Positions 2,436-32,966 of a stretch of DNA of 64,000 nt are shown piece after piece. The notes under the pieces are model-generated. The model did no database searches and was not told where the DNA came from. It saw nothing but the letters and a program-made list of their open reading frames with translations. The stretch is from Clostridiales bacterium Firm_04 (GTDB taxonomy: Bacteria; Bacillota; Clostridia; Oscillospirales; Ruminococcaceae), in contig LVAJ01000029.1 in the NCBI GenBank assembly GCA_001603005.1, positions 1-64,000 of the forward strand. The letters run 5' to 3'. A program made the translations under genes and the position numbers. Position 1 is the stretch's first letter; each line of letters begins with the position of its first letter.

Positions 2436-3096
2436 GGTATCGCTTTGCGATGATCTATAATGGGCTTTCAGCCCAAGCCTGCCCAAAGGGATTGCATCCC
2501 TTTGGGCGGGGAGCCCCCGCGGGCATATTCCTACGGAGTGCGGCAGCGTGGCTCGCCCAACAGTCGCAGTACACGCCGCTGGACGCGGCTTCTCATTCGT
2601 GACTGCTCCCAGCATGTTGCGCACCGCATACGCAGATAAGCGCACGACCGTGTTTCCGCAAACGCATCCGAGTAACGCACGGCGCTACCGGCGCGCACAG
2701 CATTCAAGTTTCGCTCAAGCCTTTTCAAAGGCTTGCAGGTCGAGGGCAGCGCCCTCGTCGCCCGTCGCAACGGGCGAAACTCCCCTAGCGTTCAAGAGCT
2801 TGGCGGGCTTGGGGACTTGCGATAGAAGCCCCATTCTATAATAGCATCCGCGAAGCGGATACTTCTTTGAGGACATGCAAACGAACATGCATCTGACATT
2901 CACATTTACATTCATATTGACATACAACCGGACACGCAAACAAAAAGTGAAAAGTGAATGGTGAATAACGAAAAGTGAAAAACAGCGGTATCGCTCCGCG
3001 ATAATTTTGAATGGGCTTCACGCACGCTTCGCTATGAGTTTGCAAGCAAACGCACCAAGCCTGACCAAAGGGATTGCGACATCCATTTGGAATCTC
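2436..3096. repeat. Mosaic repeat locus 1 (modules A, C, E, F, D, A)
   Basis: This roughly 700 bp spacer contains no credible gene. Module A (2436-2506) holds GGTATCGC..GCGATGA, GGGCTTTCAGCCC and a CCAAAGG..CCTTTGG hairpin. Module C (about 2507-2612) runs to the GCCGCTGGACGCGGC hairpin and CTGCTCCCAGC. Module E (2689-2880) is a hairpin string with stems at 2717-2734, 2741-2757 and 2759-2776. Module F (2875-2940) is degenerate ACATGCA/ACATTCA copies. Module D (2945-2985) is GTGAA-type heptads. A second, altered A copy covers 2986-3096. The same modules recur at six other spacers of the window. Confidence 0.85.
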
Positions 3097-3112
3097 ATTA
3101 TGATATAGAATT

Positions 3113-3147
3113 TGCCCCGAAGTGCGTTTGTTTCGCACTTCGGGGCA
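3113..3147 (-). terminator. Hairpin downstream of the sortase operon
   Basis: A perfect 14 bp stem (3113-3126 with 3134-3147, TGCCCCGAAGTGCG type) and a 7-base loop lie 31 bp past the last stop of the minus-strand operon. The following T tract is weak, so termination efficiency is uncertain. Confidence 0.6.
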
Positions 3148-3178
3148 TTGCTGTAAAAATGAATCACGCATCGCGCGG

Positions 3179-4078
3179 TCAGTGCTTTGCCTGCCTGATG
3201 CGTTCTTTGCGTCTGCGCAGACCGTGCAGCAGACCGAACAGCAGATAACAGCAGACCGCCGCTGCAATGCCGCCGATCGCCGTGACGATCACCGCATGCG
3301 TGCCGTGATAGAGATACCCGGTCACCGCCGCAAAGGTGTGATCCGCCTTGACCGCGAACCGGTCAAACCAGCGCGTCTGCTGGAGCCAGCATGCAGGGAT
3401 CAGCAGCAGCACCGATGCGATCAGCGCGCCCGTGCCGGTCCAGTACAGACCGGTTTCCGGCTCCCTGTGATTCGCGAAAAACAGCAGCACGATGAAGACC
3501 AGCACCGCTGCAAACGCCGCCGCGACCGCATAGCCCGCCCACGGAATGAACCGCTTTGCCGTATTCAGCACGCCGGTTTCCGAGAGCATCCCGAATCGGA
3601 ACACATCGCATGCGGAAAGGATCCGCTCCTCTGCATTTGCCTTTGCATTGCGCACTGCTTCGGAATAGGCATCGTCCTTTTCGACATGATGCTCCTTTGC
3701 ATAGATCTCAAAAAACTGTTCGATCTTGCCGTTGAGATCCTGAAAATCATGCGTAATTTCCAGCTTTGCGGTCTCGCCGCGCAGATAGGAAAAACCGTTT
3801 TTGATGCCGTCGCGGATCATCGGTTCGAGCTGCTCCGGCGTGATCGCATCCGCATACACCGAAGCGGAAATGCCGGTCGTGCTCTCCGCCGCACGGAAAT
3901 CCGCTTTCAGAGAGGCATGCACCTTCTCCGCAAGCTGCTGCTCTGCGACAAGCGGCAGAACGGCTTCCGTATGCAGCATCCGGAACCGCACAACGCCCGC
4001 AAGCGCCGCAAAAACACACGAAAAAATCAGAAAAATCGTCAGAATCACACCGGCAATATAGGTAGATGTTTTTTTCAA
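3179..4078 (-). CDS. Four-helix membrane protein of the sortase operon, unknown function
   Basis: A 299-residue protein I cannot assign to a family. One membrane segment lies at residues 8-30. It is followed by an extracytoplasmic domain of about 150 residues rich in charged helices, then three further membrane segments around 177-200, 212-230 and 255-280, and a basic Arg/Lys C-terminus. The start is TTG at 4076-4078: GGGGG precedes it by 8 bases and the N-terminus reads MKKTSTYIAGVILTIF. It is the last gene of the four-gene minus operon, 27 bp after the sortase, so it may be an accessory or another surface component. That role is inferred from position only. Confidence 0.75.
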   Translation of the reverse strand: MKKTSTYIAGVILTIFLIFSCVFAALAGVVRFRMLHTEAVLPLVAEQQLAEKVHASLKADFRAAESTTGISASVYADAITPEQLEPMIRDGIKNGFSYLRGETAKLEITHDFQDLNGKIEQFFEIYAKEHHVEKDDAYSEAVRNAKANAEERILSACDVFRFGMLSETGVLNTAKRFIPWAGYAVAAAFAAVLVFIVLLFFANHREPETGLYWTGTGALIASVLLLIPACWLQQTRWFDRFAVKADHTFAAVTGYLYHGTHAVIVTAIGGIAAAVCCYLLFGLLHGLRRRKERIRQAKH

Positions 4079-4105
4079 GTCGTAACCCCCGTTCCGTATC
4101 CTGCA

Positions 4106-4792
4106 TCATTCTGCCGGCGCATTGAACTTCTTGCTGACCGGTTTGCAGCGGACGCCGATCCGCTGATCCGCGCTGCCGATGACCTGCGGCGCGCAGGTGT
4201 AGAGCGTCAGCACCTCATCCTTTGTGACCGCGAGATAGCGCTTGTCATTCTTATCGAAGCTGATCGTCTCCGTCACCTGATAGGTGAAGCTGCCGTAATT
4301 GGTGTAGAGCACGATCTCGTCGCCGACTTTCAGCTTGCTGAGATCGGAAAAGTACGTATCAACATGCGCATCAATGACGGCATTGCCGGTCTCGCCGATG
4401 ATCGCGGACTGTGTGCTCTGGCATGCGCCGCGTTCCAGCAGCTCCGCATTGACGCCGTAATAGACGCCGACGGTCAGGTCGATCGCATCCGCCTCCAAAA
4501 CGGCATACTGCTCGCCGAACACCGGATACTTGATCGCGCCCTCGCTGTAGGTCTCGGAATCGGGCTTCTGCTCCGTGTCGATCTCGTTTTCAATGATATG
4601 CAGTCCGGCGGTGGTGCCGGTCGTTTTCAGGTTATCCATGAACGCAATGTTCAGGTATTTCTGCAAACTGTGTACCGGCGCAAGCGCATAGCACAGCACG
4701 AGAATGCCGCCGGTCAGCAGCAGAAGCAGCAGCGGCGTCAGCAGATATGCCGGCAGCGCGCTGCGTTTTTTGATCTGTTGTTCTTCAGCCAT
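4106..4792 (-). CDS. Sortase (LPxTG-type cysteine transpeptidase)
   Basis: This 228-residue membrane-anchored transpeptidase is expected to cleave sorting signals of secreted proteins and attach them to the cell wall or to each other. Residues 15-40 are a single N-terminal membrane anchor. The catalytic triad is visible as His143 in VIDAHVDTYF, Cys200 in TLYTC, and Arg211 or Arg215 in QRIGVRC. The TLYTC signature resembles class D-like sortases, but I cannot fix the class by eye. A longer frame begins at 4822, but GGAGG lies 7 bases before ATG 4790-4792, so that start is preferred. It overlaps the upstream substrate-like gene by 8 bp and sits in a tight operon with two paralogous candidate substrates. 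Confidence 0.9.
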   Translation of the reverse strand: MAEEQQIKKRSALPAYLLTPLLLLLLTGGILVLCYALAPVHSLQKYLNIAFMDNLKTTGTTAGLHIIENEIDTEQKPDSETYSEGAIKYPVFGEQYAVLEADAIDLTVGVYYGVNAELLERGACQSTQSAIIGETGNAVIDAHVDTYFSDLSKLKVGDEIVLYTNYGSFTYQVTETISFDKNDKRYLAVTKDEVLTLYTCAPQVIGSADQRIGVRCKPVSKKFNAPAE

Positions 4793-5597
4793 TGGTCGCC
4801 TCCTGTTTTCTGCTGCGGACACCGAGCCATGTCAGTCCGCCGATCGCTGCAAGCGTCATCATGCCGCCGCACAGCACCGGAACCGTCATGTCCCAGCCGG
4901 TCGGATCGACCGAAAGTCCGAGCGAAGATGCGTCCAGCAGATTGCCGTCGCTGTCGCGCACCGATATTTTCAGATTGCCGTCGGAGAGATCATCCACCGA
5001 AACATGCATGCCCATCTGGTCGGCAGTATCCGACATGCCCGCAACGATATCGCGTTTCCGGTCGGGATCCAGCTGCCGCAGAATGCTGTTGCGCTCCTCC
5101 GGCGAAAGCGTTCCGAGGAACGGCACCCGCTCATCTTCGGGCAGGCTGTCCACATAGGCGCGCTTTTCTTCGAGCGTCATTTCAGCGAACGGCTTCTCCG
5201 GCTTGACAGACGGCTCGAACGGCGCAGGTTCGTCTTTTTCGGGCGTATCATCCTGATCCGCGTATTTTTTGCGGTAATAATCCGCGAGTTTTTCCGGCGA
5301 AACGCCCATTTCCTCTGCGATCGCCGCCCAGACATAGGCTGCGCCGTTCTCATGGATCAGCGCCACCCATTCGTCATAGCTGCGGTACTGCCCGTTCATT
5401 TCCATGCCGTTTTCATCGTGCAGCATGTTCGGAAACTGATTGCGCGTATCCTGGATCATGCCGGCAGGCATCCCGACATCTTCCATTGCCTGATAGACGT
5501 CCTCGACAGTCGCCGCGGCAAAGGCGGGTACGGTCAGCAGCATTGCCGCCGCAGCCGCCGCACAGAAAGCCGCCGCAATGCGTTCAGACAGCTTCAT
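4785..5597 (-). CDS. Secreted membrane-tethered protein, candidate sortase substrate (paralog 2)
   Basis: A 270-residue protein with a signal peptide (cleavage likely after AFA, residues 24-26), an ectodomain, a C-terminal hydrophobic helix at about 237-260 and a basic RSRKQ end. This is the architecture of a sortase substrate. The ectodomain starts with VEDVYQAMEDVGMP, has an acidic/proline linker near 115-130, and a second conserved part (MTLEEKRAYVDSLPEDER, then SPEERNSILRQLDPD). Just before the helix stands VDPTGWDMTVPVL, where D-x-T-G aligns with LPxTG. It is paralogous along its length to the gene upstream. Its ATG overlaps the end of that gene by 14 bp, and it overlaps the sortase. Function of the ectodomain is unknown. 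Confidence 0.85.
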   Translation of the reverse strand: MKLSERIAAAFCAAAAAAMLLTVPAFAAATVEDVYQAMEDVGMPAGMIQDTRNQFPNMLHDENGMEMNGQYRSYDEWVALIHENGAAYVWAAIAEEMGVSPEKLADYYRKKYADQDDTPEKDEPAPFEPSVKPEKPFAEMTLEEKRAYVDSLPEDERVPFLGTLSPEERNSILRQLDPDRKRDIVAGMSDTADQMGMHVSVDDLSDGNLKISVRDSDGNLLDASSLGLSVDPTGWDMTVPVLCGGMMTLAAIGGLTWLGVRSRKQEATNG

Positions 5598-6408: not shown

Positions 6409-6488
6409 AGGATCATCCTTTCGGTTGTTCCGGAAAAGCTCCGGCAGTTCGCCGGAACGGTTTCAGTACCGGATACGGTACATCTGCT

Positions 6489-6517
6489 ATTATACCACAA
6501 ATCGCAAGGAAATGCAA
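6489..6517 (-). promoter_or_regulatory. Promoter of the sortase operon
   Basis: On the minus strand TTGCAT (6512-6517) and TATAAT (6489-6494) are separated by 17 bp, about 80 bp upstream of the first start codon. The promoter abuts repeat module C. Confidence 0.8.
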
Positions 6518-6519
6518 GC

Positions 6520-7160
6520 AGCGCGGAGCCCGCGCCGGCATATTCCTCCGGGCGGGCAGTGCCCGCATCCAATCCCCTCCGGGAGCCGGCAGCGTGGCTC
6601 TCCCAACATTCGCAGTACACGCCGCTGATCGCGGCTTCTCATTCATGACTGCTCCCAGCGAAAAAAGTGAATGGTGAATAGTGAAGAATGAATAGTGAAA
6701 AACGGAACACATCGGGAGCATAAGCAGGCGGACGCGGACGGCGAAAGCGTTCAAGACAACTGAACCCCGAAGAATCCGAAACGGCAGCGGCGCGCACTTT
6801 AGAGAGGAGAGAGTAAGGAAAGAGGGAGCGCGAGGGGGAGAACCTTAGGGAGAGGGGAGACCGGAGCAGAGCGACGACTTCCCTCTTCCTATGGTGCTTC
6901 CCCTCGCATTCGCGCCCAGCGGGCAGTGCCCGCCTCCATTTCCCTCCGGGAGCCGGTTTCGCGGACTGTCCCCGCATTCGTAGCACACGCCGCTATTCGC
7001 GGCTTCTGTGGCGTGACTGTTCCCAATAGATAGAGTGAATGGTGAATGGTGAAAAATGAATAGTGAAAAACGGAACACATCGGGAGCATACGGCGCGGAC
7101 TGTCCCCGCATTTACTGTACGCGCCGCTGGACGCGGCTTCTCAATCGTATCTTCTCCCCG
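6520..7160. repeat. Mosaic repeat locus 2 (C, D, G, C, D, C)
   Basis: No credible gene lies here. Module C copies are at about 6537-6655, 6915-7026 and a shortened one at 7090-7150. Each carries GGGAGCC..GGCTC or a relic of it and a GCCGC..GCGGC hairpin whose loop varies (CTGATC, CTATTC, CTGGAC). Module D (GTGAATGGTGAATAGTGAA) follows at 6662-6705 and 7030-7075. A purine-rich module G (about 6795-6895) matches the opposite strand at 38.1 and 45.7 kb. The C-D-G order recurs inverted at those two places. Confidence 0.85.
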
Positions 7161-7177
7161 CAATTTGTTCACATACG

Positions 7178-7216
7178 AAAACGCACCGCAGATTGTTTCG
7201 CTCCGCGGTGCGTTTT
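7178..7216 (-). terminator. Terminator of the LRR/dockerin gene
   Basis: A 12 bp perfect stem (AAAACGCACCGC at 7178-7189 with GCGGTGCGTTTT at 7205-7216) begins 9 bp past the stop at 7226 and ends in T4 on either strand. Confidence 0.85.
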
Positions 7217-7225
7217 GATTTGCTG

Positions 7226-9430
7226 TTACGGTTTGTTCAGCAGATCATCCCATGTCAGCGATTTGCCTGCAACCGTATTTTCGGTGTAGTAGATCAGAAT
7301 ATACTGCGCGTCCTCGACCGTGAGTGCGCCGTCGCCGTTGACGTCTGCGGCTTTCATCTGTACGGCGTTCAGTCCGCTGTCATTGCCCGCAAACTGCTCC
7401 GTATACGCAATCAGCGCCGCCTGCGCATCGTCCACGCCGACCGTGCCGTTCCCGTTGAGGTCGCCGCGGATGTACTGCGTGACCGGTGCGGTCGTGACAG
7501 CCGCGGTGCTTGTGGTAACCGCATTGGTTGTGGCAAATGTATTCGTTGTGGCAACTGCCTTTGTCGTGGCGGCTGTATTCGTTGTGGCAACTGCCTTTGT
7601 CGTGGCGGCTGTATTCGTTGTGGTGGCTGTATTCGTCGTGGTAGCATTGGTCGTTGCAGTCGTAGCGGCGGAAGTTGTTACGGTCACGCTCCCTATAGCT
7701 TCAAATGGTATTTCGCATCTTTGAGCATATTCTTCAGCGGCTGATCCTGCATAACCTTTAATGACTTTCAAATCGGTACAATCGGATAAAGCATCTACAC
7801 CAATGCTGGTTACACCAGCCGGAATAGTAATGCTTGTCAAGCCAGTGCAGCCGATGAATGCATAATCACTAATAATTGTGACACTGTCCGGAATCGTGAT
7901 GTCAGTCAGGTTTATGCAATTTTGAAATGCTCCGGATTCAATATTCGTAACACTGTTCGGAATATCGATACTTGTCAGACTGATACAGTCCATAAATGCA
8001 TTGTCACCAATATTGGTAACACTGTTCGGAATTGTGATACTAGCCAATCCGGTACAATCACCAAATGCACATTCACCTATTTCAGTAACACTATTCGGAA
8101 TAGTAAAGCTTGTTAAACCGGTGCAACCGTAAAATGCACCATCACTAATAATTGCAACACCATCTGAGAGTGTGATACTTGTAAGATTCGGACAATCCAT
8201 AAATACGTTGTATCCAATTTTAGTGACACTACTGGGAATCGTGATTCCTGTCAATTTTGTACATTCATTGAATGCATAACTGCAAATACTTGTCACAGTA
8301 TCAGGAATAATGACATCCCCTTTACAAGGTTTTGCGTCAATCAGTATTCCGTTCACAATAACAAGCGGATATTCTTTCTGTCTTGCAAACAGCCAAGCTG
8401 TTCCTTCAAATGCATGTTCACTGATTTCCGTCACACTTTCCGGAATCGTGATATTCAGCAGATTGGTACAGTCGCAGAATGCTCGTGAACCGATACTGAT
8501 GACACCGTCCGAAATCACAGCACTCGTTAAGCCGTTGCATCCTTCAAACGCCGCTTTTTCGATGTTAGTGACACTTTCTGGAATGGTAATACTTGTTAAG
8601 CCAGCACATTTGCTGAATGCCATATCAATGATACTTGTTACACCGTCCGGAACAGAAATATCCCCCTTGCATGTGGTACCGTCAATCAATAACCCGTTCA
8701 CAATCACAAGCGGATTTTCACTCTGCCTTGCACGAAGCCACGGTGTACCCTTAAAAGAATCAGCACCAATGTGCTCAACGCTGTCCGGAATCGTAAGAGT
8801 GTATAAACCAGTACAGCCGCTGAAAGCACTGCTTCCAATGCTTGTGACACCGTCAGGAATCATGATTTCATTGATACCGGAACATCCGTAGAATGAATTA
8901 TATCCGATACTGGTTACACTGTTTGGAATAGAAATACTTCTTAGTCTTGAACACTTTTCAAATATTCTATTACCAATGTTTGTAACGCCATCTGGAATGT
9001 TAATGCTTGTCAATCCAGTACAGCCGGAAAAAGCGCTGTCACCAATACTTGTGACACTGTTCGGAATTGTAACGCTTGTCAATTCGGTGCAATCGGAAAA
9101 AGCGCTGTTTCCAATACTTGTGACACTATACGGAATCGTGATACTTGTCAGTCGTCTGCAGTTTGAAAATGCATTATAACGAATGCCGGTAACGGGAACA
9201 CCGTCAATCCATGATGAAATCTTAATTGTGCTTGCATCTGTAAAAAGACACTTTTCCACTTCCGCATAATCATCAAAAATACGATATCGGAGCAGACCAT
9301 CCTCTTGAGTCACCGATTCTGCGGCATAAGCAGTTCGCTGCGGCAGAGCATCCGCCGGCATTGCAGCAGAAACGGCGGTGAACGCCAGACATGCCGCGCA
9401 GAGCAGTGCGGGCTTTCGGAACTTTGTCAT
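7226..9430 (-). CDS. Secreted BspA-like leucine-rich-repeat protein with C-terminal dockerin-like module
   Basis: This 734-residue protein has a signal peptide (residues 1-36) and then about twenty LRR_5 repeats of 23 residues with the pattern SITIPNSVTSIGDSAFSGC. Two larger inserts with the motif WLxARQxExPLVIVNG break the solenoid. A Thr/Ala-rich linker follows, then two EF-hand-like dockerin segments (GDLNGNGTVGVDDAQAALIAY and DVNGDGALTVEDAQYILIYY) with a WDDLL end. LRR_5 proteins are surface adhesion or binding modules, and a dockerin would dock it to a cohesin. The start at 9430 is chosen because GGAG lies 7 bases before that ATG; the longer frame from 9457 has no such site. The repeat region is AT-richer than its neighbours. 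The ligand is unknown. Confidence 0.9.
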   Translation of the reverse strand: MTKFRKPALLCAACLAFTAVSAAMPADALPQRTAYAAESVTQEDGLLRYRIFDDYAEVEKCLFTDASTIKISSWIDGVPVTGIRYNAFSNCRRLTSITIPYSVTSIGNSAFSDCTELTSVTIPNSVTSIGDSAFSGCTGLTSINIPDGVTNIGNRIFEKCSRLRSISIPNSVTSIGYNSFYGCSGINEIMIPDGVTSIGSSAFSGCTGLYTLTIPDSVEHIGADSFKGTPWLRARQSENPLVIVNGLLIDGTTCKGDISVPDGVTSIIDMAFSKCAGLTSITIPESVTNIEKAAFEGCNGLTSAVISDGVISIGSRAFCDCTNLLNITIPESVTEISEHAFEGTAWLFARQKEYPLVIVNGILIDAKPCKGDVIIPDTVTSICSYAFNECTKLTGITIPSSVTKIGYNVFMDCPNLTSITLSDGVAIISDGAFYGCTGLTSFTIPNSVTEIGECAFGDCTGLASITIPNSVTNIGDNAFMDCISLTSIDIPNSVTNIESGAFQNCINLTDITIPDSVTIISDYAFIGCTGLTSITIPAGVTSIGVDALSDCTDLKVIKGYAGSAAEEYAQRCEIPFEAIGSVTVTTSAATTATTNATTTNTATTTNTAATTKAVATTNTAATTKAVATTNTFATTNAVTTSTAAVTTAPVTQYIRGDLNGNGTVGVDDAQAALIAYTEQFAGNDSGLNAVQMKAADVNGDGALTVEDAQYILIYYTENTVAGKSLTWDDLLNKP
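7545..7616 (-). repeat. 36 bp tandem repeat encoding the Thr/Ala linker
   Basis: Two exact 36 bp copies (7545-7580 and 7581-7616) with degenerate flanking copies encode the 12-residue unit ATTNTAATTKAV in the LRR/dockerin protein. The unit length keeps the frame, so the linker can expand or shrink without a frameshift. Confidence 0.9.
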
Positions 9431-9471
9431 TGTCAATCTCCTTTCGCGCAAGAACAATTCGGTACAACTCC

Positions 9472-15539: not shown

Positions 15540-15723
15540 ATGGGCTTCACGCACGCTTCGCTATGAGTTTGCAAGCAAACTCACCAAACCCGCCAAAGGG
15601 ATTGCATCCCTTTGGGCGGGGAGCCCCCGCTGGCATTTCCCTCCGGGCAGCGGCGGCGTGGCTCTCCCCACGTTCGCAGTACACGCCGCTGGACGCGGCT
15701 TCTCAAAGGTGACTGCTCCCAGC
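15499..15723. repeat. Mosaic repeat locus 3a: modules A and C at the 3' end of cca
   Basis: Module A begins inside cca at GGTATCGC, includes GTGTCTCCGACGGATTCTGA (which carries the stop), a GAGTTTGC..GCAAACTC hairpin in place of the usual GGGCTTTCAGCCC, and the CCAAAGG..CCTTTGG hairpin. Module C follows at 15618-15723. Confidence 0.85.
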
Positions 15724-15765
15724 GCATTGCGCTCTGCAGACGAAATCGAACGCGCAAACGCAACC

Positions 15766-16145
15766 GGCGCGCACAGTATTAAAGTTTTGATCGAACTTTT
15801 TCAAAAGTTCGCGGAGTCCAGAGGCAGAGCCTCTGGTCGCCCGTCGCAACGGGCGAAATTCCCCAGCGTTCAATTTCGGGAAGAAAAGGGCTTGGGAAAA
15901 GCCCCCCTTTCTAAAAGGGGCAGCTTGTCCCATTCTAAATAGCATCTGCGAAGCAGGCGGGGAGCCCCCGCTGGCATTTCCCTCCGGGCGGCGTGGCTCT
16001 CCCCACGTTCGCAGTACACGCCGCTGGACGCGGCTTGCGGGGAGTCCCCGCGGGCAATTTCCTCCGGAGTGCGGCAGCGTGGCTCTCCCAACTTTTGCTG
16101 TTCACGCCGCTAGACGCGGCTTCTCAAAGGTTACTGCACCCAGCG
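15766..16145. repeat. Mosaic repeat locus 3b: E then two C copies
   Basis: Module E copy 2 (15766-15962) has GAACTTTTTCAAAAGTTC, CCAGAGGCAGAGCCTCTGG and CGCCCGTCGCAACGGGCG stems, plus extra GGGCTTGGGAAAAGCCC and CCCCTTTCTAAAAGGGG hairpins. Two C copies follow back to back at about 15958-16037 and 16036-16145. No gene is credible here. Confidence 0.85.
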
Positions 16146-16220
16146 GATTGCGCTCCTCATACGAAGATGGGCGCACAACCGCGTTCTCGCAAACGTATCC
16201 GATTCACACACAACGCAACC

Positions 16221-16685
16221 GGCGCGCACCAGTATTAAAGTTTCGCTCAAGCCTTTTCAAAGGCTTGCAGGTCGAGGGCAGCGCCCTCGTCGCTCTCCGC
16301 AGAGAGCGAAACTCCCCCAGCGTTCAAGAGCTTGGCGGGCTTGGGGACTTGCGATAGAAGTCCCCATTCTATAATAGCATCCGCGAAGCGGATACTTCTT
16401 TGAGGACATGCATTTCGACATTCATATTCACATGCAAATGCGGACATTCATCCCGACATACAAACGCAACATTCATTCAACATGCAAACGGGCATACACA
16501 GATCAGACATGCATCCCGACATACTAACGGACATGCACAAACGGGACATGCACCAATCGGACATGCATCCCGACATACTAACGGACATGCATCTTCACAT
16601 TCATATTAACATGCACAAATCCGGCATACTAATAAACATGCAAAAAAGTGAATAATGAATGGTGAAGAATGAAAAGTGAATAGCG
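16221..16685. repeat. Mosaic repeat locus 3c: E, long F array, D
   Basis: Module E copy 3 (16221-16412) has AAGCC-type and CGAGGG-type stems and CGCTCTCCGCAGAGAGCG. Module F (16405-16640) is the longest array in the window: degenerate units around GACATGCA and GACATACTAACG, with one longer unit repeated twice near 16515-16590. Module D (GTGAA heptads) closes the locus at 16640-16685. Confidence 0.85.
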
Positions 16686-16819
16686 GGAAAGAGCGGGGAG
16701 ACAATGTGCTCCCTGTTTCGCGTATCAGAAACCGAAAGTGACGGAATTGTAATGAAAAAGTCACGGAAAAGAGAGATTCCCGTGCTATGATAAAAATACA
16801 AAGCAAGGGAGGTATTCAT

Positions 16820-20835: not shown

Positions 20836-21030
20836 ATGGACTTTCAGCCCAAGCCTGACCAAAGGGATTGCATCCCTTTGGGCGGGGAGCCCCCGCGGGC
20901 ATTTCCCTCCGGGAGCCGGCAGCGCGGCTCTCCCCACATTCGCAGTTCACGCCGCGGGGCGGCTTCTCAATCGTGACTGCTCCCAGCGGAAAAGTGAATG
21001 GTGAATAGTGAAAAGTGAAGAACGGCGGTA
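20792..21030. repeat. Mosaic repeat locus 4a: A, C, D at the end of the EamA gene
   Basis: Module A starts within the coding sequence (GGTATCGC at 20791), carries GTGTCTCCGACGGATTCTGA with the stop, then the CCAAAGG..CCTTTGG hairpin. Module C spans about 20881-20990 and D about 20991-21025, followed by another GGTATCGC..GCGATGA. Confidence 0.85.
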
Positions 21031-21080
21031 TCGCTGCGCGATGATTTGAAAAGGTGCGCATAATTCCTGCTAACGCATCC

Positions 21081-21415
21081 GGCGCGCACCAGTATTAAAG
21101 TTTTGATCGAACTTTTTCAAAAGTTCGCGGAGTCCAGAGGCAGAGCCTCTGGTCGCGATCCGCAGATCGCGAAACTCCCCAGCGTTCAAGAGCTTGGCGG
21201 GCTTGGGGACTTGCGATAGAAGTCCCCATTCTATAATAATATCCGCGAAGCGGATACTTCTTTAAGGACATGCATACTTGCATTCAAATCTGACATGCAA
21301 ACGCGACATGCATTATGACATTCAAATGGATATGCATAAACAAGACATACAAACCTAACATACCAAAATCAGACATACACCCCGTCATGGACACAGAAAA
21401 GTGAAAAGTGAATAA
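21081..21415. repeat. Mosaic repeat locus 4b: E, F, D
   Basis: Module E copy 4 (21081-21272) shows stems at 21109-21126, 21134-21152 (CCAGAGG-type) and 21154-21171 (CGCGATCCGCAGATCGCG). Module F (21265-21395) consists of ACATGCA/ACATACA units, and D ends the locus just before the minus-strand gene. A CCCCGTGA..TCACGGGG hairpin (21422-21444) may terminate that gene. Confidence 0.8.
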
Positions 21416-21451
21416 CAAACGCCCCGTGAACCGAATCACGGGGCGTTCGCA

Positions 21452-23977
21452 TTATGCGGTTACGATGTTGTTTGCTTCGTGCAGATTGAGGTAATCGACC
21501 GCTTCCTCGCGCATCTTGTACTTCAGGATCTTGCCGGCTGCATTCATCGGGAATGCATCGACAAAACGGACATAGCGCGGCACCTTCGTCTTATCCATGT
21601 GCGAGCGGACATATTCCTTGAGGTCGTCCTCGGTGCAGGTCGCGCCCTCGTTGCGGATGACGCATGCCATTGCTTCCTCGCCGTACTGCTTATCCGGCAC
21701 GCCGATGACCTGTACATCGCGGACATCCGGATGCGTGTAGAGGAAGTCCTCGATCTCCTTCGGATAGAGGTTCTCGCCGCCGCGGATGATCATATCCTTG
21801 ATTCTGCCGGTGATCTTGAAATAGCCACTGTCGGGCAGTCTGCGCGCCAAGTCACCGGAATGCAGCCAGCCGTCCTCGTCGATGACTGCGGCTGTTGCTT
21901 CGGGCATCTTGTAATAGCCCTTCATGATGTTGTATCCGCGGGCACAGAACTCGCCGTCCACGCCGTCCGGCACTTCCTCGCCGGTCTCCGGATCGACAAT
22001 CTTGCACTCGACACCGAAGATCGGGCCGCCGACTGTATTGACACGCGCCTCGATCGAATCGGTCGTCTTGGACATTGTTGTTGCGGGAGATGCCTCGGTC
22101 TGACCGTAGGTAATGCAGATCTCCGGCATGTGCATCTTCTCGATGACTTCCTGCATCGTCTTGATCGGGCAGGGAGAGCCTGCCATGATGCCCGTGCGCA
22201 TGTGGGAGAAATCGGTCTGCGGGAAGTTTTCATGTCCGAGCATTGCAATGAACATGGTCGGAACGCCGTGGAAACAGGTGATCTTCTCCTGATTGATGCA
22301 GTGCAGTCCCTTGCGCGGCGAGAATGCCGTGATCGGAGACATCGTGACGGCATGCGTCACGGATGCGGTCATCGCGAGCACCATGCCGAAGCAGTGGAAC
22401 ATCGGCACCTGAATCATCATGCGGTCTTCCGAGGACAGATCCATGCAGTCGCCGATCGCCTTGCCGTTGTTGACGACATTGTAATGCGTGAGCATAACGC
22501 CCTTCGGGAAGCCGGTCGTGCCGGACGTATACTGCATGTTCGCAACATCGTCCTTTTTGATCGCACGGCGGCGGCGCTCGACCTCTGCGAGCGGCACTTC
22601 CTTATACTTCGCGACCGCCTCATCCCATGTGTAGCAGCCCGGCTGCTTGCTCTCGATCGTAATGACATTTTTCAGGAACGGGAACTTTTCGGATTCCAGC
22701 TTGCCCGGCTCGGACGTTGTGATCTCCGGGATCAGCGTGCGGATGATCTCGTTGTAATCGGTGCCCTTGTAGGCGTCGATCATGACGAGCGTGTGCGTAT
22801 CAGACTGTTTCAGCACATACTCTGTCTCGTGGATCTTGTTGCCGGTGTTGAACGTGACCAGCACCGCGCCGATCTTGGTCGTTGCCCAGAACGTGATGTA
22901 CCATGCAGGCACATTGGTCGCCCAGATCGCGACCTTGTCGCCGGCACCGACGCCCATTGCGATCAGGGCACGCGCAAAGGTATCCACATCGTCGCGGAAC
23001 TGCGGGTAGGTGCGGGTGTAGTCCAGCTCGGTGTAGCGGAATGCATACTGATTCGGGAACTGCTCGCAGATGCGGTCGAGCACATCCGGGAATGTGTAGT
23101 CGAGCAGGCGCTCCTTCGGCCACGGATAATAGCCGTTGCCGCGGTTGCTGACCTGCAGCTCATGCTTGTACTTGGTGCGGTATTTTGCCATGTAATCCGC
23201 GAACTGCGGGAACACGATGCCCGCATCGGAAAGCTCCGGCATCCAGCGCTTTACCCATTCGAGGGAAATGTAGCCCGTATAGTTGATGCCTGCGAGCGCT
23301 GCCATCATGTCATCGAGCGGCAGATCGCCCCTGCCCATCAGCTCATAGCGGAGCTTGCCGTCCTTGAACGAGCTGTCCTTTGTCTGCACGAACTTGATGT
23401 AATTGCCGAGCGTGCTGACCGTGGTTTCCGGCGATTCGCCGCCGTAGCGGTAGGGGTGGTGCATATCCCAGAGCGCTGCGACATGGATGCTGCCGATCTT
23501 GTCGAGCATGGCTTTCAGGCGCTTTGTATCGCTGAACACGCCGTTTGTCTCGACCAGCAGCGTCACATCATGTGCCTCTGCTTCGGGGATCAGGGAGGTC
23601 AGGACCGATGCAACATAGTCATCGTCCACAATGCCGGTCACTTCGCTGTAACGGTCGCCGAGCACGCGGATATACGGTGCGCCGACTGCCTGTGCAAGCT
23701 CCATGCACGCAAGCAGCTCGCGGCGGTTCTGCGCCTCATTCTCCTGCTCATTCAGGCAGCAGTTCGAGCTGACGCAGGGGATCTCCAGCTTGAGGGATTT
23801 CAGCTTTGCGACGGTCTTCGGCAGCAGTACACCGGTGAACGGCTTGGTGCGGTAGGGATCCGCCGGCAGACCGTAACAGCGCAGCTCGATGCCGTCAAAG
23901 CCGAGGTCCTTTGCCATGGAATAGACATCCGGCCATTCAAAATCCGGACAGCCCAGCGTGGAAAAACAGATCTTCAT
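21452..23977 (-). CDS. Fusion: sugar-phosphate isomerase/epimerase-like TIM barrel + acyl-CoA synthetase
   Basis: This 841-residue cytosolic protein joins two domains. Residues 1-265 form an AP-endonuclease-2/xylose-isomerase-like TIM barrel: LGCPDFEW, LRVLG-type strands, LLVETNG near 141 and ISLEWVKRW near 238 carry the usual metal-binding Glu/Asp/His positions. Residues 285-841 form an AMP-dependent synthetase/ligase of the FadD type, with P-loop MQYTSGTTGFPKGVMLTH near 481, ITYGQTEASP, and the C-terminal GGENLYPKEIE and lysine near AAGKILK. The start at ATG 23977 has GGAGG 8 bases upstream; the frame itself begins at 24001. The barrel may prepare or hydrolyse what the ligase activates, but this is inference. 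The gene is monocistronic behind a long structured leader. Confidence 0.88.
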   Translation of the reverse strand: MKICFSTLGCPDFEWPDVYSMAKDLGFDGIELRCYGLPADPYRTKPFTGVLLPKTVAKLKSLKLEIPCVSSNCCLNEQENEAQNRRELLACMELAQAVGAPYIRVLGDRYSEVTGIVDDDYVASVLTSLIPEAEAHDVTLLVETNGVFSDTKRLKAMLDKIGSIHVAALWDMHHPYRYGGESPETTVSTLGNYIKFVQTKDSSFKDGKLRYELMGRGDLPLDDMMAALAGINYTGYISLEWVKRWMPELSDAGIVFPQFADYMAKYRTKYKHELQVSNRGNGYYPWPKERLLDYTFPDVLDRICEQFPNQYAFRYTELDYTRTYPQFRDDVDTFARALIAMGVGAGDKVAIWATNVPAWYITFWATTKIGAVLVTFNTGNKIHETEYVLKQSDTHTLVMIDAYKGTDYNEIIRTLIPEITTSEPGKLESEKFPFLKNVITIESKQPGCYTWDEAVAKYKEVPLAEVERRRRAIKKDDVANMQYTSGTTGFPKGVMLTHYNVVNNGKAIGDCMDLSSEDRMMIQVPMFHCFGMVLAMTASVTHAVTMSPITAFSPRKGLHCINQEKITCFHGVPTMFIAMLGHENFPQTDFSHMRTGIMAGSPCPIKTMQEVIEKMHMPEICITYGQTEASPATTMSKTTDSIEARVNTVGGPIFGVECKIVDPETGEEVPDGVDGEFCARGYNIMKGYYKMPEATAAVIDEDGWLHSGDLARRLPDSGYFKITGRIKDMIIRGGENLYPKEIEDFLYTHPDVRDVQVIGVPDKQYGEEAMACVIRNEGATCTEDDLKEYVRSHMDKTKVPRYVRFVDAFPMNAAGKILKYKMREEAVDYLNLHEANNIVTA

Positions 23978-24250
23978 AATGATACCTCCCAGTATCTGCA
24001 CGAAAAAAACGGTGTGAAGCCGTCAGACCTCACACCGTTGATTCGCATGATTTCGGGTTTTCCGATTGCTCATCTGAAAACGCCCGTGCACAACGAAGCA
24101 GGCCTGTGACAATCTGCCAAGACCGTAAGTCGAAGGACGAGCGAAAATACATCGTGCATGGAAAACAACCCTTTCCGCCGGATGATGGATACAATTACCC
24201 TCTCCGGCACTTGATGTCGTTATTATAGCACACTCGGCGCAGTTTGTCAA
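23978..24250 (-). promoter_or_regulatory. Promoter and ~235 nt structured leader with attenuator
   Basis: The minus-strand promoter is perfect: TTGACA (24245-24250), 17 bp, TATAAT (24222-24227). The leader can fold a GCCGGA/TCCGGC helix containing a GGGTA/TATCC helix near its 5' end. It ends in an intrinsic terminator at 24003-24039 (AACGGTGTGA with TCACACCGTT, then T7) placed immediately before the ribosome binding site. That layout suggests a riboswitch or protein-controlled attenuator. I do not recognise a known riboswitch core and see no T-box TGGNACCGCG. Confidence 0.65.
24003..24039 (-). terminator. Attenuator terminator before the fusion gene
   Basis: A 10 bp perfect stem (24030-24039 with 24008-24017 on the minus strand) followed by seven T residues, about 26 bp upstream of the start codon. 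Confidence 0.8.
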
Positions 24251-27304: not shown

Positions 27305-27429
27305 TCATACCCCAATATCAATCAGCACTCTGCAAAGGGTGCTTTTTTCATGCCGGCAGACGGCATCCGTCCTGAAAGGAGCTGCTCTCGAACCGGCTGC
27401 TGCCGCTGACATTTGACTGGAAGTCTGAA

Positions 27430-28410: not shown

Positions 28411-28461
28411 GAAGCAGGCTCCTTTCTGCGCAGATCTGAAGTATGCTGTTTGTATGTCAGG

Positions 28462-29007: not shown

Positions 29008-29023
29008 TGATTTGCTCCTTTCC

Positions 29024-29941: not shown

Positions 29942-30006
29942 ATTCCTTTCTGACGTCACGCATATGATTTCGTTATACAAGTTTTATCTGCATGGATTAT
30001 TCTGAA

Positions 30007-30468
30007 TCAAAACAGCATGGACATAAACTCTGAAAAAGTATCGGCAACCTTTTCCGTCACCGGTTCCCATTCACCTGATTCCTCATGGAACCAAACGCAT
30101 ACACTCGGTATAGCAGATGCTCTGTAGTCAAGGCATAGCAAGTCACCGGCAAACAGTGCAGCAATCGGGATAATCTCATATCCTAACCGATCTGGATCTG
30201 CAATAATTCTTTCATCAACCTGTGTCAACACAACATTGATGTCATACGCAGCGTAGTCTTCATCCGTCCCTTTTTCTTTGATACAGAGAAACCGCTCGAT
30301 CATTCGTGTCTGTCGACCGCATTGAAATTCTCTCTTTTCAGGAATCCCGCCATTGTATTCCATTAACAAAGAACGAAATTCGTCAGGCAGTTTTACTCTC
30401 CATTTCCTTTCAACATCAGCCATTCTTTCACTGTCAGGTCTGTATGTATATCCGTTTGACAGTTTCAT
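30007..30468 (-). CDS. SMI1/KNR4 (SUKH-1) immunity-like protein, 153 aa
   Basis: A small soluble protein with the SUKH-1 hallmarks LPDEFRSLLMEYNGGIPE near residue 25 and the glycine/aspartate-rich FAGDLLCLDYR region near 105, followed by VCVWFHEE. SUKH-1 proteins neutralise polymorphic toxins or act as general interaction modules. ATG 30466-30468 has GGAG 9 bases upstream; an alternative ATG two codons earlier is too close to it. It is flanked by a second SUKH-like gene and a truncated copy of that gene's 5' end. Confidence 0.8.
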   Translation of the reverse strand: MKLSNGYTYRPDSERMADVERKWRVKLPDEFRSLLMEYNGGIPEKREFQCGRQTRMIERFLCIKEKGTDEDYAAYDINVVLTQVDERIIADPDRLGYEIIPIAALFAGDLLCLDYRASAIPSVCVWFHEESGEWEPVTEKVADTFSEFMSMLF

Positions 30469-30512
30469 AATCATTCTCTCCTTCGTTTTTAGTAAGTCAA
30501 TAGTGCCAATAT

Positions 30513-30616
30513 AGTGTGCATACCGTGCTGATTTCCGCGTCAGACATCGGTTCCAGATCAATCTCGTTCATGAACCGGAACAGCTCGTCAAGCTGATCCC
30601 CGTGAAATCTTTCCAT
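30513..30616 (-). pseudogene. Truncated 5' copy of the SUKH-like gene
   Basis: This 104 bp stretch nearly repeats 29836-29941 and would encode the same N-terminus (MERFHGDQLD...DAEISTVCT) before running out of homology. A few substitutions separate the copies. It marks recombination between tandem SUKH genes that removed the rest of a former copy. Confidence 0.8.
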
Positions 30617-30625
30617 TGCAAAACC

Positions 30626-31246
30626 TCATGCTTTCCGGATCGGCAGCCGGATCACCGTTTTCAGCTTTTCCGGCGCAGTCTTTCGCGGATCGGACAGATA
30701 GATCTCATGATGCAGCCGACCGTCCGCAAAGTCGGTCTGATACCCGTTTTCCTGCATGAACTGTTCCATGCGGGCAATGGTCGCCGGCTCGTCATCGTAG
30801 CTGCCCTGATGCAGGATCTGCACGCAAAGCCCCTCGTCCACCCGCCGGAACGTCACATCCGCGCAGTCCAGCATTTTCTTTTTCGCAGCGGTTTCCTTTG
30901 CCCACTGCACATGCTCCGGCGTAATGAAATCCGGAAGGCGGATCACGGAGATCCATTCCAGCTTCGATTTATCCGTCAGCATTTTGCCTTCCAGCCGCCA
31001 GAATCCTTCCAGCGGCGGCACAACATATTCAAAAAAGCCCGCGATGCGATAATCTGTCTTATAGCTCATCTTCAATGTATATGCGACCGCATAGAGCTTC
31101 GCTAGCGCCTGCTGATAGGCACCGTCCGGCGTATTCGGATCGCCCGTACCCGTCACTGCGAGGAAATTCGCGGCGGGAACCGTCACAACAGACGGCACAT
31201 TCTTCGGCAGATAGTATTCCTTGTACTCTTTTTTGAAATCAAACAT
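30626..31246 (-). CDS. GyrI-like small-molecule-binding protein
   Basis: A 206-residue soluble protein of the GyrI/SbmC-like superfamily: MFDFKKEYKEYYLPKN at the start, VPAANFLAVTGTGDPN near 25, LEGFWRLEG near 77 and CVQILHQGSYDDEPATIARM near 147. These domains bind hydrophobic or cationic small molecules and are often found alone or fused to regulators. It is second in the minus-strand transcript that begins with the gene at 32650. The stop is directly followed by the SUKH fragment. Confidence 0.85.
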   Translation of the reverse strand: MFDFKKEYKEYYLPKNVPSVVTVPAANFLAVTGTGDPNTPDGAYQQALAKLYAVAYTLKMSYKTDYRIAGFFEYVVPPLEGFWRLEGKMLTDKSKLEWISVIRLPDFITPEHVQWAKETAAKKKMLDCADVTFRRVDEGLCVQILHQGSYDDEPATIARMEQFMQENGYQTDFADGRLHHEIYLSDPRKTAPEKLKTVIRLPIRKA

Positions 31247-31267
31247 GATGCCGCATTCCTTTCTGTA

Positions 31268-32650
31268 TCACCGCAGCTGCTCCAGCACGGCTGTCAGCTC
31301 GGCGACCGCCTGTGCAGGGAGTCCGCGCTCCGCGTAGCGGTCTGTGTGATAGGCTTCTGTGACCGCGTCCAGCGCATGCGCCGGCGTGTGGTGGCAGAGC
31401 CATTTGCCGCGGATCTCGCGCACGGTATCCGAATCGCGCAGCTCGTCCTGTTCCCAGACCGGCGATTCCAGCAGCAGCGCATAGCCCGCGTAGAATTTCT
31501 CCTGTGTATCCGGCAGCTTTTTCCATGCATGCAGCTTCTGCCGCCATTTGCGCCGCTGCTTTCGTGCAGAGAGCGGCTTTTCCGCGGTTGTCTCGGTATC
31601 GTAATATTCATCGGAATCCGGCACGATCCGGTAAACGCCGTCTTTCAGCCGTTTGCCGCGCAGGATCGCCAGCAGCCGCGACAGTGCATCGCGGATCACA
31701 TCCGCCCACTCCGACAGCAGATTCCGCCAGATGTACCATGTCACCAGAATGATCGGGATCCAGAACACCAGCCAGAGCGGACTGAATGTGCCCTCCGGCG
31801 GCTGCTCCGGCGGCATCCCGTCCGGTTCCGTTTCGTAATAGTCCTCGCCGAGCAGCTTTCCCATTGCGCGCGTCAGCATCCGGATCAGAAAGATCACGGA
31901 TTTTGCCGCAAGATCGCGCATATTCGCAAGCAAAGTAATCAGCTGCTCCCGGAACAGAAAGACCGCAGCCCCCAGCAGCAGGATCCCCGCGACCATGAGC
32001 AGATTGCCGCGCCGGATCTCCCGCGGGACTTCCAGCTCCGCATTGCTGCGCCGGTTCACGAGCCGCATCAGCATGAACTGATTGCGCTGGAGCAGATACA
32101 GCACCGAAACCGTAGCCGTGACGGTCAGATACCAGTTCATATGTACCGGCAGCGCTGCGGCTTGCAGCATGATTGCCGTGATGACATCAATCGTCAGGAA
32201 TGCAACAAAATGCGGGCGCTCAAAGAGCTTGTCCGGTTCGCGGTCAATTCCGTGCAGCGGCGAAAGAACCGCAGCCGCCGTCAGCAGCAGCGCAATGAAC
32301 ATGCCGCCGTTCAGCCGATAAACCGCAAGCGTAGTAAGCACCGCCGCAGGGATCGCAGCGGCAGTTTTCAGCAGCAGAACTCTGCGCGGCAGCGTCCGGA
32401 AACGCTGTCCGACTGCGCGGGCGATGAGCTGAAAAATAAAGGACATGCAGCAGACAAATGCAGCAGGCAAAAGCACCTGCTTCTCTGAATCCAACGGGAT
32501 CAGTGCGCCGTTTAAAAACGCCTTCACGAACCGGAGTTCGCCTTCCTGCGCACGCAGCGACGGCAGCAGGATGCAGACCGGAAACCATGCCAGCGCCCTG
32601 CAAAGGATCGCCGCAGCGGTCAGCAGCTGCTTTCGTGTGTTTGTGTGCAT
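31268..32650 (-). CDS. Multi-helix membrane protein with DUF4129-like C-terminus
   Basis: A 460-residue protein with seven or eight membrane helices within residues 1-310 and a cytosolic region of about 150 residues ending in VREIRGKWLCHHTP ... LDAVTEAYHTDRYAERG, which resembles the DUF4129 helical domain found with transglutaminase-like proteins. No transglutaminase gene is next to it, so its partner is unknown. It is the first gene of the minus-strand group, 21 bp before the GyrI-like gene, with its own consensus promoter. Confidence 0.7.
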   Translation of the reverse strand: MHTNTRKQLLTAAAILCRALAWFPVCILLPSLRAQEGELRFVKAFLNGALIPLDSEKQVLLPAAFVCCMSFIFQLIARAVGQRFRTLPRRVLLLKTAAAIPAAVLTTLAVYRLNGGMFIALLLTAAAVLSPLHGIDREPDKLFERPHFVAFLTIDVITAIMLQAAALPVHMNWYLTVTATVSVLYLLQRNQFMLMRLVNRRSNAELEVPREIRRGNLLMVAGILLLGAAVFLFREQLITLLANMRDLAAKSVIFLIRMLTRAMGKLLGEDYYETEPDGMPPEQPPEGTFSPLWLVFWIPIILVTWYIWRNLLSEWADVIRDALSRLLAILRGKRLKDGVYRIVPDSDEYYDTETTAEKPLSARKQRRKWRQKLHAWKKLPDTQEKFYAGYALLLESPVWEQDELRDSDTVREIRGKWLCHHTPAHALDAVTEAYHTDRYAERGLPAQAVAELTAVLEQLR

Positions 32651-32691
32651 ATGCGCGCCCCCCTCTCTCCTGTTATTGCTGTTACAGCTTC

Positions 32692-32720
32692 ATTTTACCA
32701 TAACGCGCGGGGTTTGTCAA
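32692..32720 (-). promoter_or_regulatory. Promoter of the DUF4129/GyrI/SUKH transcript
   Basis: Minus-strand TTGACA (32715-32720), 17 bp, TAAAAT (32692-32697), about 40 bp before the start. Confidence 0.75.
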
Positions 32721-32772
32721 CGGCAGGAACGCGGTGGGGAGTGGCTGTTCAGGGATTTATGATTACGCATCC

Positions 32773-32966
32773 GGCGCGCACCAGTATTAAAGTTTTGATC
32801 GAACTTTTTCAAAAGTTCGCGGGTTCTTAGGGCAGAGCCCTAAGCCGCTCTCCGCAGAGAGCGGAACACCCCGGCGTTCTGTTTCGGGAAGAAAAGGGCT
32901 TGGGAAAAGCCCACCTTTCTGAAAGGGGCAGCTTTTCCCATTCAAAATAGCATCCGCGAAGCGGAT
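32773..32966. repeat. Mosaic repeat module E, copy 5
   Basis: It has the same hairpin order as the other E copies but with a different second stem (TTAGGGCAGAGCCCTAA) and third stem (CCGCTCTCCGCAGAGAGCGG), the GGGCTTGG..AAGCCC and CCTTTCTGAAAGG hairpins, and ATCCGCGAAGCGGAT at the end. Confidence 0.85.

What the first reader, a model, noticed from the sequence alone, without database searches (positions are those of the whole stretch)
2689..32966. Dispersed hairpin-string repeat (module E) with compensatory stem changes
Five copies (2689-2880, 15766-15962, 16221-16412, 21081-21272, 32773-32966) keep the same order of hairpins while stem sequences differ and still pair. First stem: AAGCCTTTTCAAAGGCTT or GAACTTTTTCAAAAGTTC. 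Second: CGAGGGCAGCGCCCTCG, CCAGAGGCAGAGCCTCTGG or TTAGGGCAGAGCCCTAA. Third: CGCCCGTCGCAACGGGCG, CGCTCTCCGCAGAGAGCG or CGCGATCCGCAGATCGCG. Loops and linkers are nearly constant. Covarying stems with fixed loops are what selection on RNA or single-stranded DNA folding leaves behind. I do not know a described family with this layout; it could be a mobile structured RNA, a non-autonomous element, or a regulatory array.
Basis: partly seen in the sequence, partly recalled or inferred. Interest (0 to 1): 0.82.

Follow-up and report, generated by a model that had tools for sequence, protein, structure and literature searches.

The report
Clostridial hairpin-string repeat with swapped stems
Some gut and rumen Clostridia carry dozens to more than a hundred copies of a non-coding repeat made of short, almost perfectly paired hairpins whose loops stay fixed while whole stems are exchanged between copies, and in one cultured species two copies usually sit tail to tail with differing stems, which looks like an undescribed DNA-level mobile repeat rather than an ordinary RNA.

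Summary
The five copies are real, the three copies folded beat shuffles, one only weakly, the stems covary strongly, and no Rfam family matches. The window's genome has 64 copies. The repeat is patchy in Clostridia: 11 of 291 class genomes, with at least 150 copies each in Butyricicoccus pullicaecorum DSM 23266 and Pseudoruminococcus massiliensis.

Three results shift the reading. (1) G-T pairs are nearly absent: 2 of 1076 free cells in B. pullicaecorum, against 6% in tRNAs and terminator-like hairpins. (2) Stems behave as cassettes: few alleles, many combinations, rare chimeras split at a loop. (3) Close neighbours are tail to tail (17 to 0; 41 to 1 in B. pullicaecorum), and there the arms share stems less than chance allows (15 of 114, 34 expected). 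Listed P. massiliensis copies and most window-genome copies do not show doublets.

Best explanation: a non-autonomous DNA element that behaves like REPINs or BOX but is longer, multi-hairpin and without RAYT. Enzyme, target duplication and any transcript are unknown. Selection on RNA is not favoured but not excluded.

The parts
2689..2880 (+). Copy 1 (short 3' half): stem 1 2716-2735, stem 2 2741-2757, stem 3 2758-2777, stem 4 2811-2832, end hairpin 2846-2860
   Evidence: sequence; stem coordinates; core hit 2705-2791, 105.8 bits
15766..15962 (+). Copy 2 (long 3' half): stem 1 15792-15811, stem 2 15818-15836, stem 3 15837-15856, 3' hairpin starting 15888, end hairpin 15943-15957
   Evidence: core hit 15781-15869, 96.3 bits
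16221..16412 (+). Copy 3 (short 3' half), same direction as copy 2: stem 1 16248-16267, stem 2 16273-16289, stem 3 16290-16309, stem 4 16343-16365, end hairpin 16379-16393
   Evidence: core hit 16237-16323, 109.8 bits
21081..21272 (+). Copy 4 (short 3' half): stem 1 21108-21127, stem 2 21134-21152, stem 3 21153-21172, stem 4 21205-21227, end hairpin 21241-21255
   Evidence: core hit 21097-21185, 96.8 bits; fold z -4.6 RNA, -6.5 DNA
32773..32966 (+). Copy 5 (long 3' half): stem 1 32800-32819, stem 2 32827-32843, stem 3 32845-32864, 3' hairpin starting 32896, end hairpin 32952-32966
   Evidence: core hit 32789-32877, 96.5 bits

Best explanation
The repeat is one arm of a non-autonomous, interspersed DNA element of Clostridia. 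Each arm starts at a sharp AAAGTTT edge and is a string of short hairpins whose loops and linkers are fixed and whose stems are interchangeable cassettes. In Butyricicoccus pullicaecorum most sampled arms stand as doublets, tail to tail, 321-346 nt between the outward edges in eight read in full; the window's genome holds mostly single arms. SHOWN: copy number and patchy spread, the covariation, near-absence of G-T pairs and mismatches, reshuffled stem alleles with chimeras split at a loop, the tail-to-tail bias among close neighbours, and under-sharing of stems by the two arms of B. pullicaecorum doublets. INFERRED: the element spreads as DNA through an enzyme encoded elsewhere; copies exchange hairpins by recombination at their shared loops and linkers; each hairpin is kept perfect because it must fold as DNA (single strand or cruciform); and arms with matching stems are lost or do not work, because they would form one long palindrome instead of a branched structure.
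For: 64 matches in own genome; 11 of 291 class genomes in 8 families. Not at conserved sites: model hits at 4 of 18 upp loci (one weak) and 1 of 26 CCA-transferase loci of the genus, some loci being cut by contig ends. Four copies in a contig with phage terminase, portal and capsid genes. Sharp 5' edge over 138 copies. Orientation to genes near random: 26, 25, 20, 17 of 88. Pairing, cells not fixed by the search motif: class loci stem 3, 437 of 441 Watson-Crick, 3 G-T, 1 mismatch (from the table; one search counts 374 of 378 on its own matches); B. pullicaecorum stems 2 and 3, 1071 of 1076, 2 G-T, 3 mismatches; genus alignment, 14 variable pairs, 549 of 560, 2 G-T, 9 unpaired. Controls: tRNA 17 of 291 G-T, 77 terminator-like hairpins 42 of 680 G-T. 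Cassettes: 35 three-stem combinations in 51 parsed own-genome copies, chimeras L039, L254, L260; 67 four-stem combinations in 83 arms. Doublets: 17 tail-to-tail, 0 head-to-head within 1 kb; 41 and 1 in 378,223 sampled bases, 82 of 111 arms. Shared stems between arms 15 of 114, expected 34.4, 0 of 20,000 re-pairings as low.
Against: No clean empty site or target-site duplication: sister genomes G021 and G329 differ by whole mosaic blocks at the compared sites, and flanks of 17 doublets show no consistent direct repeat. No enzyme was identified; Y1_Tnp was the only transposase family searched for. Doublets are not general: own genome 3 tail-to-tail pairs within 1 kb, 1 same-direction, and 2 head-to-head at 1.7 and 2.2 kb; among the 57 listed P. 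massiliensis copies no tail-to-tail pair but 6 same-direction ones; beyond 1 kb in class loci head-to-head neighbours are the more frequent, 12 to 7. Arm avoidance is not universal: outside Butyricicoccus stem 1 is the same by eye in 4 of 8 comparable doublets (parser 3 of 3, stem 2 in 0 of 4); in B. pullicaecorum stem 2 is the same in 10 of 30. Stems 1 and 2 are associated in the own genome. Stem 2 in class loci has 20 G-T and 69 unpaired of 596 cells at positions 4-7 from the loop, partly because stem length varies. Copies share alleles by descent, so cells are not independent. A conserved GCAAGAG/GCGATAG-like loop in stem 5 and a possible CCCC/GGGG helix with G-U pairs would suit an RNA.
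Confidence: 0.53

Rival explanations
1. A multi-copy structured RNA: the string is transcribed and folding of the RNA is what selection keeps.
For: Strong covariation; conserved loops, including a GCAAGAG/GCGATAG-like loop of stem 5; stable RNA folds; two promoter-like matches (0.6 expected, sd 0.9) both lie inside the repeat at the same point of copies 2 and 3, minus strand, 15775-15804 and 16231-16260.
Against: G-T pairs, which RNA tolerates, are 0.2-0.8% of free cells against 6% in tRNAs and terminator-like hairpins; orientation to genes near random; symmetric tail-to-tail doublets; the promoter-like matches are not clearly above chance and copy 1 has none inside it; no Rfam match.
Confidence: 0.16
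2. Perfect pairing is mutational, not selected: replication template switching within hairpins copies one arm onto the other, and gene conversion spreads the results; the element is a passive repeat.
For: Explains near-zero G-T pairs and mismatches without function; unmatched chimeric stems exist and are tolerated (L039, L254, L260); an orthologous site in sister species has stem 1 changed on both arms.
Against: Does not explain why loops, linkers and hairpin order stay fixed across a class, why close pairs are tail to tail, or why the arms of a doublet share few stems.
Confidence: 0.14
3. Gene-end modules kept by the host: bidirectional transcription terminators or insulators between genes.
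For: 139 of 171 copies do not overlap a long ORF (crude gene picks); window copies 1 and 3 end in a terminator-like hairpin with a T-rich tail; the centre of B. pullicaecorum doublets resembles a terminator.
Against: Positions are not conserved between species of the genus; 20 of 88 copies lie between divergent genes, where no terminator is needed; a terminator does not need several further hairpins; patchy presence.
Confidence: 0.12
4. A REP/REPIN element moved by a RAYT (Y1) transposase.
For: Extragenic, high copy, inverted doublets plus singlets, hairpin-forming, as REPINs are described (PMC3116915, passages).
Against: No Y1_Tnp match in the window's genome and in 3 of 26 genus genomes only; none in B. 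pullicaecorum DSM 23266, P. massiliensis, B. pullicaecorum ET57 or Clostridiaceae strain 9, partial matches in Ruminococcus sp. FC2018; arms are hairpin strings that share few stems, whereas the two REPs of a REPIN pair with each other.
Confidence: 0.03

Closest known systems
REPINs / REP sequences (RAYT-associated; PMC3116915, passages read)
   Same: High-copy extragenic repeats; inverted doublets as the likely unit with singlets as remnants; hairpin-forming; compensatory changes reported in the REPIN hairpin.
   Different: [quoted passage not shown] Here each arm is a string of several hairpins, arms share few stems in B. pullicaecorum, and Y1_Tnp was not found in the highest-copy genomes tested.
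BOX elements of streptococci (PMC3049150, passages read)
   Same: Modular, interspersed, strongly folded, modules vary between copies.
   Different: BOX varies by number of boxB modules; here the modules are hairpins whose stems are swapped. No tail-to-tail doublet organisation was in the passages read.
MITEs in general, BIMEs, Correia elements (definitions as quoted in passages)
   Same: Small, interspersed, inverted ends in doublets, strong folding.
   Different: No target-site duplication and no related insertion sequence found; the inverted repeats are hairpin strings rather than simple ends.
Hairpin elements of organelle genomes (double-hairpin elements, GC clusters, RHE; search listing only)
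   Same: Dispersed hairpin elements; nesting of hairpins inside others is recalled for them and seen here.
   Different: Organelle genomes, one or two hairpins per unit (recalled); no cassette-swapped string is known to me.

Membership tests
REPIN / RAYT system | RAYT (Y1_Tnp) transposase in the genome | tested here: not met
   0 matches in own genome (a draft, 89% complete), 3 of 26 genus genomes; 0 in 4 of 5 named isolate genomes, partial matches in the fifth
REPIN / RAYT system | Inverted doublets as the prevalent close arrangement | tested here: met
   17 tail-to-tail, 0 head-to-head, 5 same-direction within 1 kb in class loci; 41, 1 and 2 in B. pullicaecorum stretches. Not met among the listed P. 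massiliensis copies
REPIN / RAYT system | The two ends pair with each other into one long hairpin | tested here: not met
   Stems of the two arms shared in 15 of 114 comparisons, expected 34.4; three folds keep local hairpins with linkers pairing across
MITE | Terminal inverted repeats | tested here: met
   Doublets begin AAAGTTT-like and end with its reverse complement, which follows from being two inverted arms; single arms do not show this
MITE | Target-site duplication | tested here: inconclusive
   No consistent direct repeat in 17 doublets; no clean empty site at the upp site or at three further sites, two of them with a copy
MITE | Ends shared with an autonomous insertion sequence | tested here: inconclusive
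   Longest ORFs between 4 of the 7 far tail-to-tail pairs were looked at by eye, no transposase recognised; no search by ends was made
BOX element | boxA, boxB, boxC sequences | not tested
   No BOX sequence was compared; only passages of the paper were read
Any Rfam 15 family | Score at or above the gathering threshold | tested here: not met
   0 in the window; only an unrelated T-box in 10 other loci; three matches far below their gathering scores at E <= 10 around copy 1
Intrinsic terminator | GC-rich hairpin directly followed by a T run | tested here: inconclusive
   End hairpins at 2846-2860 and 16379-16393 pass a simple scan with an ACTTCTTT tail; the other hairpins of copies 1-3 do not (copies 4 and 5 not scanned)

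The most novel reading that the evidence does not exclude
A mobile DNA element that obeys two opposing rules at once: every small hairpin must be a perfect Watson-Crick palindrome, and the two arms must not be complementary to each other. Swapping whole stems between copies at fixed loops satisfies both, so that the unit folds as a ladder of opposed hairpins (a row of four-way junctions) which an unknown, non-RAYT, structure-reading enzyme copies and pastes.
Probability: 0.22. Interest if true: 0.87.

Novelty: new variant of a known kind. Interest (0 to 1): 0.7.

Why it matters
Covariation is usually read as a sign of a functional RNA. Here a family with textbook covariation almost lacks G-T pairs, swaps whole stems and, in some genomes, stands in symmetric doublets, so it is a warning for covariation-based RNA discovery and offers a G-T test to tell RNA from DNA folding. 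If the arm-avoidance rule is general, it shows how a repeat built of palindromes can live at more than 100 copies per genome without becoming one long, unstable palindrome. Copies abound in cultured gut bacteria, so the question can be put to experiment.

Tried and rejected
Rfam at gathering and at E <= 10: nothing relevant. RAYT association: rejected. Autonomous version between distant tail-to-tail arms: longest ORFs of four of the seven such pairs looked at by eye, no transposase recognised. Empty sites between sister genomes G021 and G329: intergenic regions are replaced as whole blocks, so no clean insertion was seen. TA target duplication: not consistent. Phage and plasmid records: no match for the window copy; for a copy from another genus two unannotated faecal phage records matched over 43% and 38% of the query and no plasmid. 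Of two further virus scans one gave L187 again and one added two contigs that were not examined (L284, L285). Idea that the CGTC-tagged REPs of PMC3733652 apply: dropped, as the CG before TC is not constant; of that paper I saw the start of the abstract in a listing and a term search with 0 mentions of Firmicutes, Clostridi, Ruminococc or Faecalibacterium. A possible CCCC/GGGG helix with G-U pairs could not be tested, since its 3' strand hardly varies (a script that stopped with an error at the 24th of 25 rows; the 23 printed rows were used). Nine literature searches, one with six stretches of the repeat as text (0 papers): no listed title or abstract start describes this repeat. Lists were cut (20 of 42, 10 of 22, 12 of 805, 10 of 216 shown), and that library lacks preprints and most subscription journals.

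Rows dropped before counts: one search left 15 of 66 own-genome pieces unparsed (several are nested copies, halves of one copy or cut by a locus end; L254 among them is used as a chimera by eye). One search read stem 3 in 147 and stem 2 in 149 of 166 hits; its stem-3 total of 1176 cells (1170 Watson-Crick, 3 G-T, 3 mismatches) includes pairs fixed by the search pattern, so only the 441 free cells are quoted as evidence. One search left out 51 hits at locus edges and 32 overlapping a long ORF, of 171. One search used 30 of the 38 doublets; there stems 1 and 4 were located by their pairing and stems 2 and 3 by motifs that fix some pairs, so recounted only free pairs of stems 2 and 3. The terminator control admits no mismatches, only G-T. 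The G330 stretches were chosen because they hold copies, so density there is not a genome average.

Full report
What was checked. The five copies are present at the stated places and every quoted stem was found there. A covariance model R1 of the three-hairpin core, built from 40 copies of the genus, finds the five at 96-110 bits and nothing else above 16 bits in the window. Folds beat shuffles, more so with DNA than RNA parameters for 21081-21272 (z -6.5 and -4.6); copy 5 has z -4.0; copy 1 is weaker (z -2.1; its complement -3.4). Two 3' halves alternate.

Extent. BLAST gives 52 pieces in the window's genome, the model 64 matches. By BLAST the repeat is in 22 of 25 genomes of the genus, the own one included, and 0 of 16 from other families of the order. 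With the model, 11 of 291 genomes of the class have it, the own one included, in 8 families; that scan used strict filters, scored 15 candidates per genome and rests on one genus, so it is a lower bound. In named isolates the model finds at least 150 copies in B. pullicaecorum DSM 23266 and P. massiliensis (150 was the number scored), 85 in Clostridiaceae strain 9, 16 in B. pullicaecorum ET57, 9 in Ruminococcus sp. FC2018, and 4 in phage contig L187. The genus of the window includes the MAG Ruminococcus sp. Phil11: contig C32 of G021 has the length of MSGZ01000032.1 and the same copy.

Covariation, and what kind. On 40 genus copies, 12 of 23 pairs change on both sides, 99.0% of 920 cells pair, against 85.3% in shuffles and 25-51% when slid; one-sided changes are 2 cells, unpaired 9. 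The pattern left three base pairs of stem 3 free: of 126 matches 122 pair at all three; 374 of 378 cells are Watson-Crick, 3 G-T, 1 mismatch, with 24 different triplet combinations, the broken ones included. Counted over the 147 copies readable by anchors, these three pairs give 437 of 441, 3 G-T, 1 mismatch (table); the outer pairs of stem 3 are fixed by the pattern and say nothing. Stem 2 is less tidy in the class loci (20 G-T, 69 unpaired of 596 cells at positions 4-7). In B. pullicaecorum, where arms were found by sequence profile, the free pairs of stems 2 and 3 give 1071 of 1076 Watson-Crick, 2 G-T, 3 mismatches. Controls: 14 tRNAs from the fetched loci, 17 G-T of 291; 77 terminator-like hairpins outside the repeat in the same B. 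pullicaecorum DNA, 42 G-T of 680. Fisher P for B. pullicaecorum is 3e-10 against tRNAs and 9e-16 against terminator-like hairpins, to be taken loosely because copies are related. RNA helices under selection pass easily through G-U; these stems hardly do. Inference: what is preserved is perfect Watson-Crick pairing, that is DNA folding, or a copying process that makes arms match.

Stems as cassettes. In the window's genome each stem has a few alleles: stem 3 mainly TCT, GAT and CCG-T types; 51 parsed copies show 35 combinations of three stems. Stem 3 assorts almost freely with stems 1 and 2, whereas stems 1 and 2 are associated. L039 has the left half of one stem-3 allele and the right half of another; L254 and L260 do the same in stem 2, in opposite senses, around a nested hairpin. 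Such breakpoints at the loop are what recombination between copies would leave. At the upp site of sister genomes G021 and G329 stem 1 differs on both arms, and G329 has an extra hairpin nested in stem 2. Further hairpins are nested at recurrent points.

Movement. At orthologous places the repeat comes and goes: model hits at 4 of 18 upp loci, one of them weak, and 1 of 26 CCA-transferase loci of the genus; several loci are cut by contig ends. Contig L187 carries terminase, portal and capsid genes and four copies. The 5' edge is sharp at AAAGTTT over 138 copies. Orientation to neighbouring genes is near random (26, 25, 20, 17; upstream neighbour co-directed 51, opposed 37, P 0.17; gene calls are crude ORF picks). 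No empty site or target duplication could be shown.

The larger unit. Neighbouring copies within 1 kb are tail to tail: 17 against 0 head to head and 5 same-direction ones, mostly fragments, in the class loci; beyond 1 kb head-to-head neighbours are more frequent, 12 to 7. In the window's genome there are 3 tail-to-tail and 1 same-direction pair within 1 kb (the window's copies 2 and 3), and 2 head-to-head pairs at 1.7 and 2.2 kb. In 378,223 bases of B. pullicaecorum there are 111 arms, 41 tail-to-tail neighbours, 1 head-to-head, 2 same-direction; 82 of the 111 arms are in tail-to-tail pairs. P. massiliensis differs: among its 57 listed copies there are 6 same-direction neighbours, mostly one array, and no tail-to-tail pair. 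Eight B. pullicaecorum doublets read in full have outward edges 321-346 nt apart and mostly one of two outer caps; in them all 32 stem comparisons differ by eye. In the larger set shared stems are 1 of 32 (expected 8.0) for stem 1, 10 of 30 (15.5) for stem 2, 0 of 30 (3.1) for stem 3, 1 of 30 (6.6) for stem 4; re-pairing whole arms gives 15 of 114 shared against 34.4 expected, 0 of 20,000 as low (allele definitions differ slightly between the two calls). Three folds show local hairpins with linkers pairing across. In the own-genome doublets 8 of 9 stem comparisons differ by eye. Elsewhere outside Butyricicoccus stem 1 is the same by eye in 4 of 8 comparable doublets, and by parser in 3 of 3, stem 2 in 0 of 4, so the rule is not absolute.

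Reading. The parts fit a non-autonomous DNA element whose small hairpins must fold and whose arms, where doubled, should not pair. It works like REPINs (inverted doublet, singlet remnants; PMC3116915, passages) and is modular like BOX (PMC3049150, passages). It is not a REPIN by the test of its transposase: Y1_Tnp was not found in the window's genome nor in four of five isolate genomes. That long palindromes are unstable through SbcCD is recalled knowledge, not tested here. The enzyme, the target and any transcript are unknown. The window's five copies are single arms, possibly remnants, most of them in long intergenic mosaics of other repeated modules.

Noticed in passing
window 2433-3121, 6505-7160, 15540-16786, 20836-21451: Long intergenic regions built as mosaics of other repeated modules: hairpins such as GCGGGGAGCCCCCGC and GGTATCGCTTCGCGATGAT, arrays of GACATGCAT-like units and of AAAGTGAATAGTGAA-like units.
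   Followed up: no
window 3025-3051 and 15554-15580: A hairpin (CGCTTCGCTATGAGTTTGCAAGCAAAC) free in the window whose reverse complement, with small changes, is nested in the stem-2 loop of ten own-genome pieces of the repeat: a second, smaller mobile-looking hairpin.
   Followed up: partly
window 15775-15804 and 16231-16260, - strand: Promoter-like matches (TTGAAA, 18 nt, AATACT) at the same point inside copies 2 and 3, pointing out of the repeat; not clearly above chance.
   Followed up: no
L286 (Pseudoruminococcus massiliensis contig): Five copies in a same-direction array with alternating spacing, unlike the doublets of Butyricicoccus.
   Followed up: partly
L287-L294: The centre of B. pullicaecorum doublets is a hairpin with TTCG or GAAA-like loops that resembles terminators lying just outside some doublets.
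   Followed up: no
window 7226-9457, - strand: BspA-type leucine-rich-repeat protein with a weak dockerin match.
   Followed up: no
window 21452-24001, - strand: ORF joining a xylose-isomerase-like TIM barrel and an AMP-binding enzyme.
   Followed up: no
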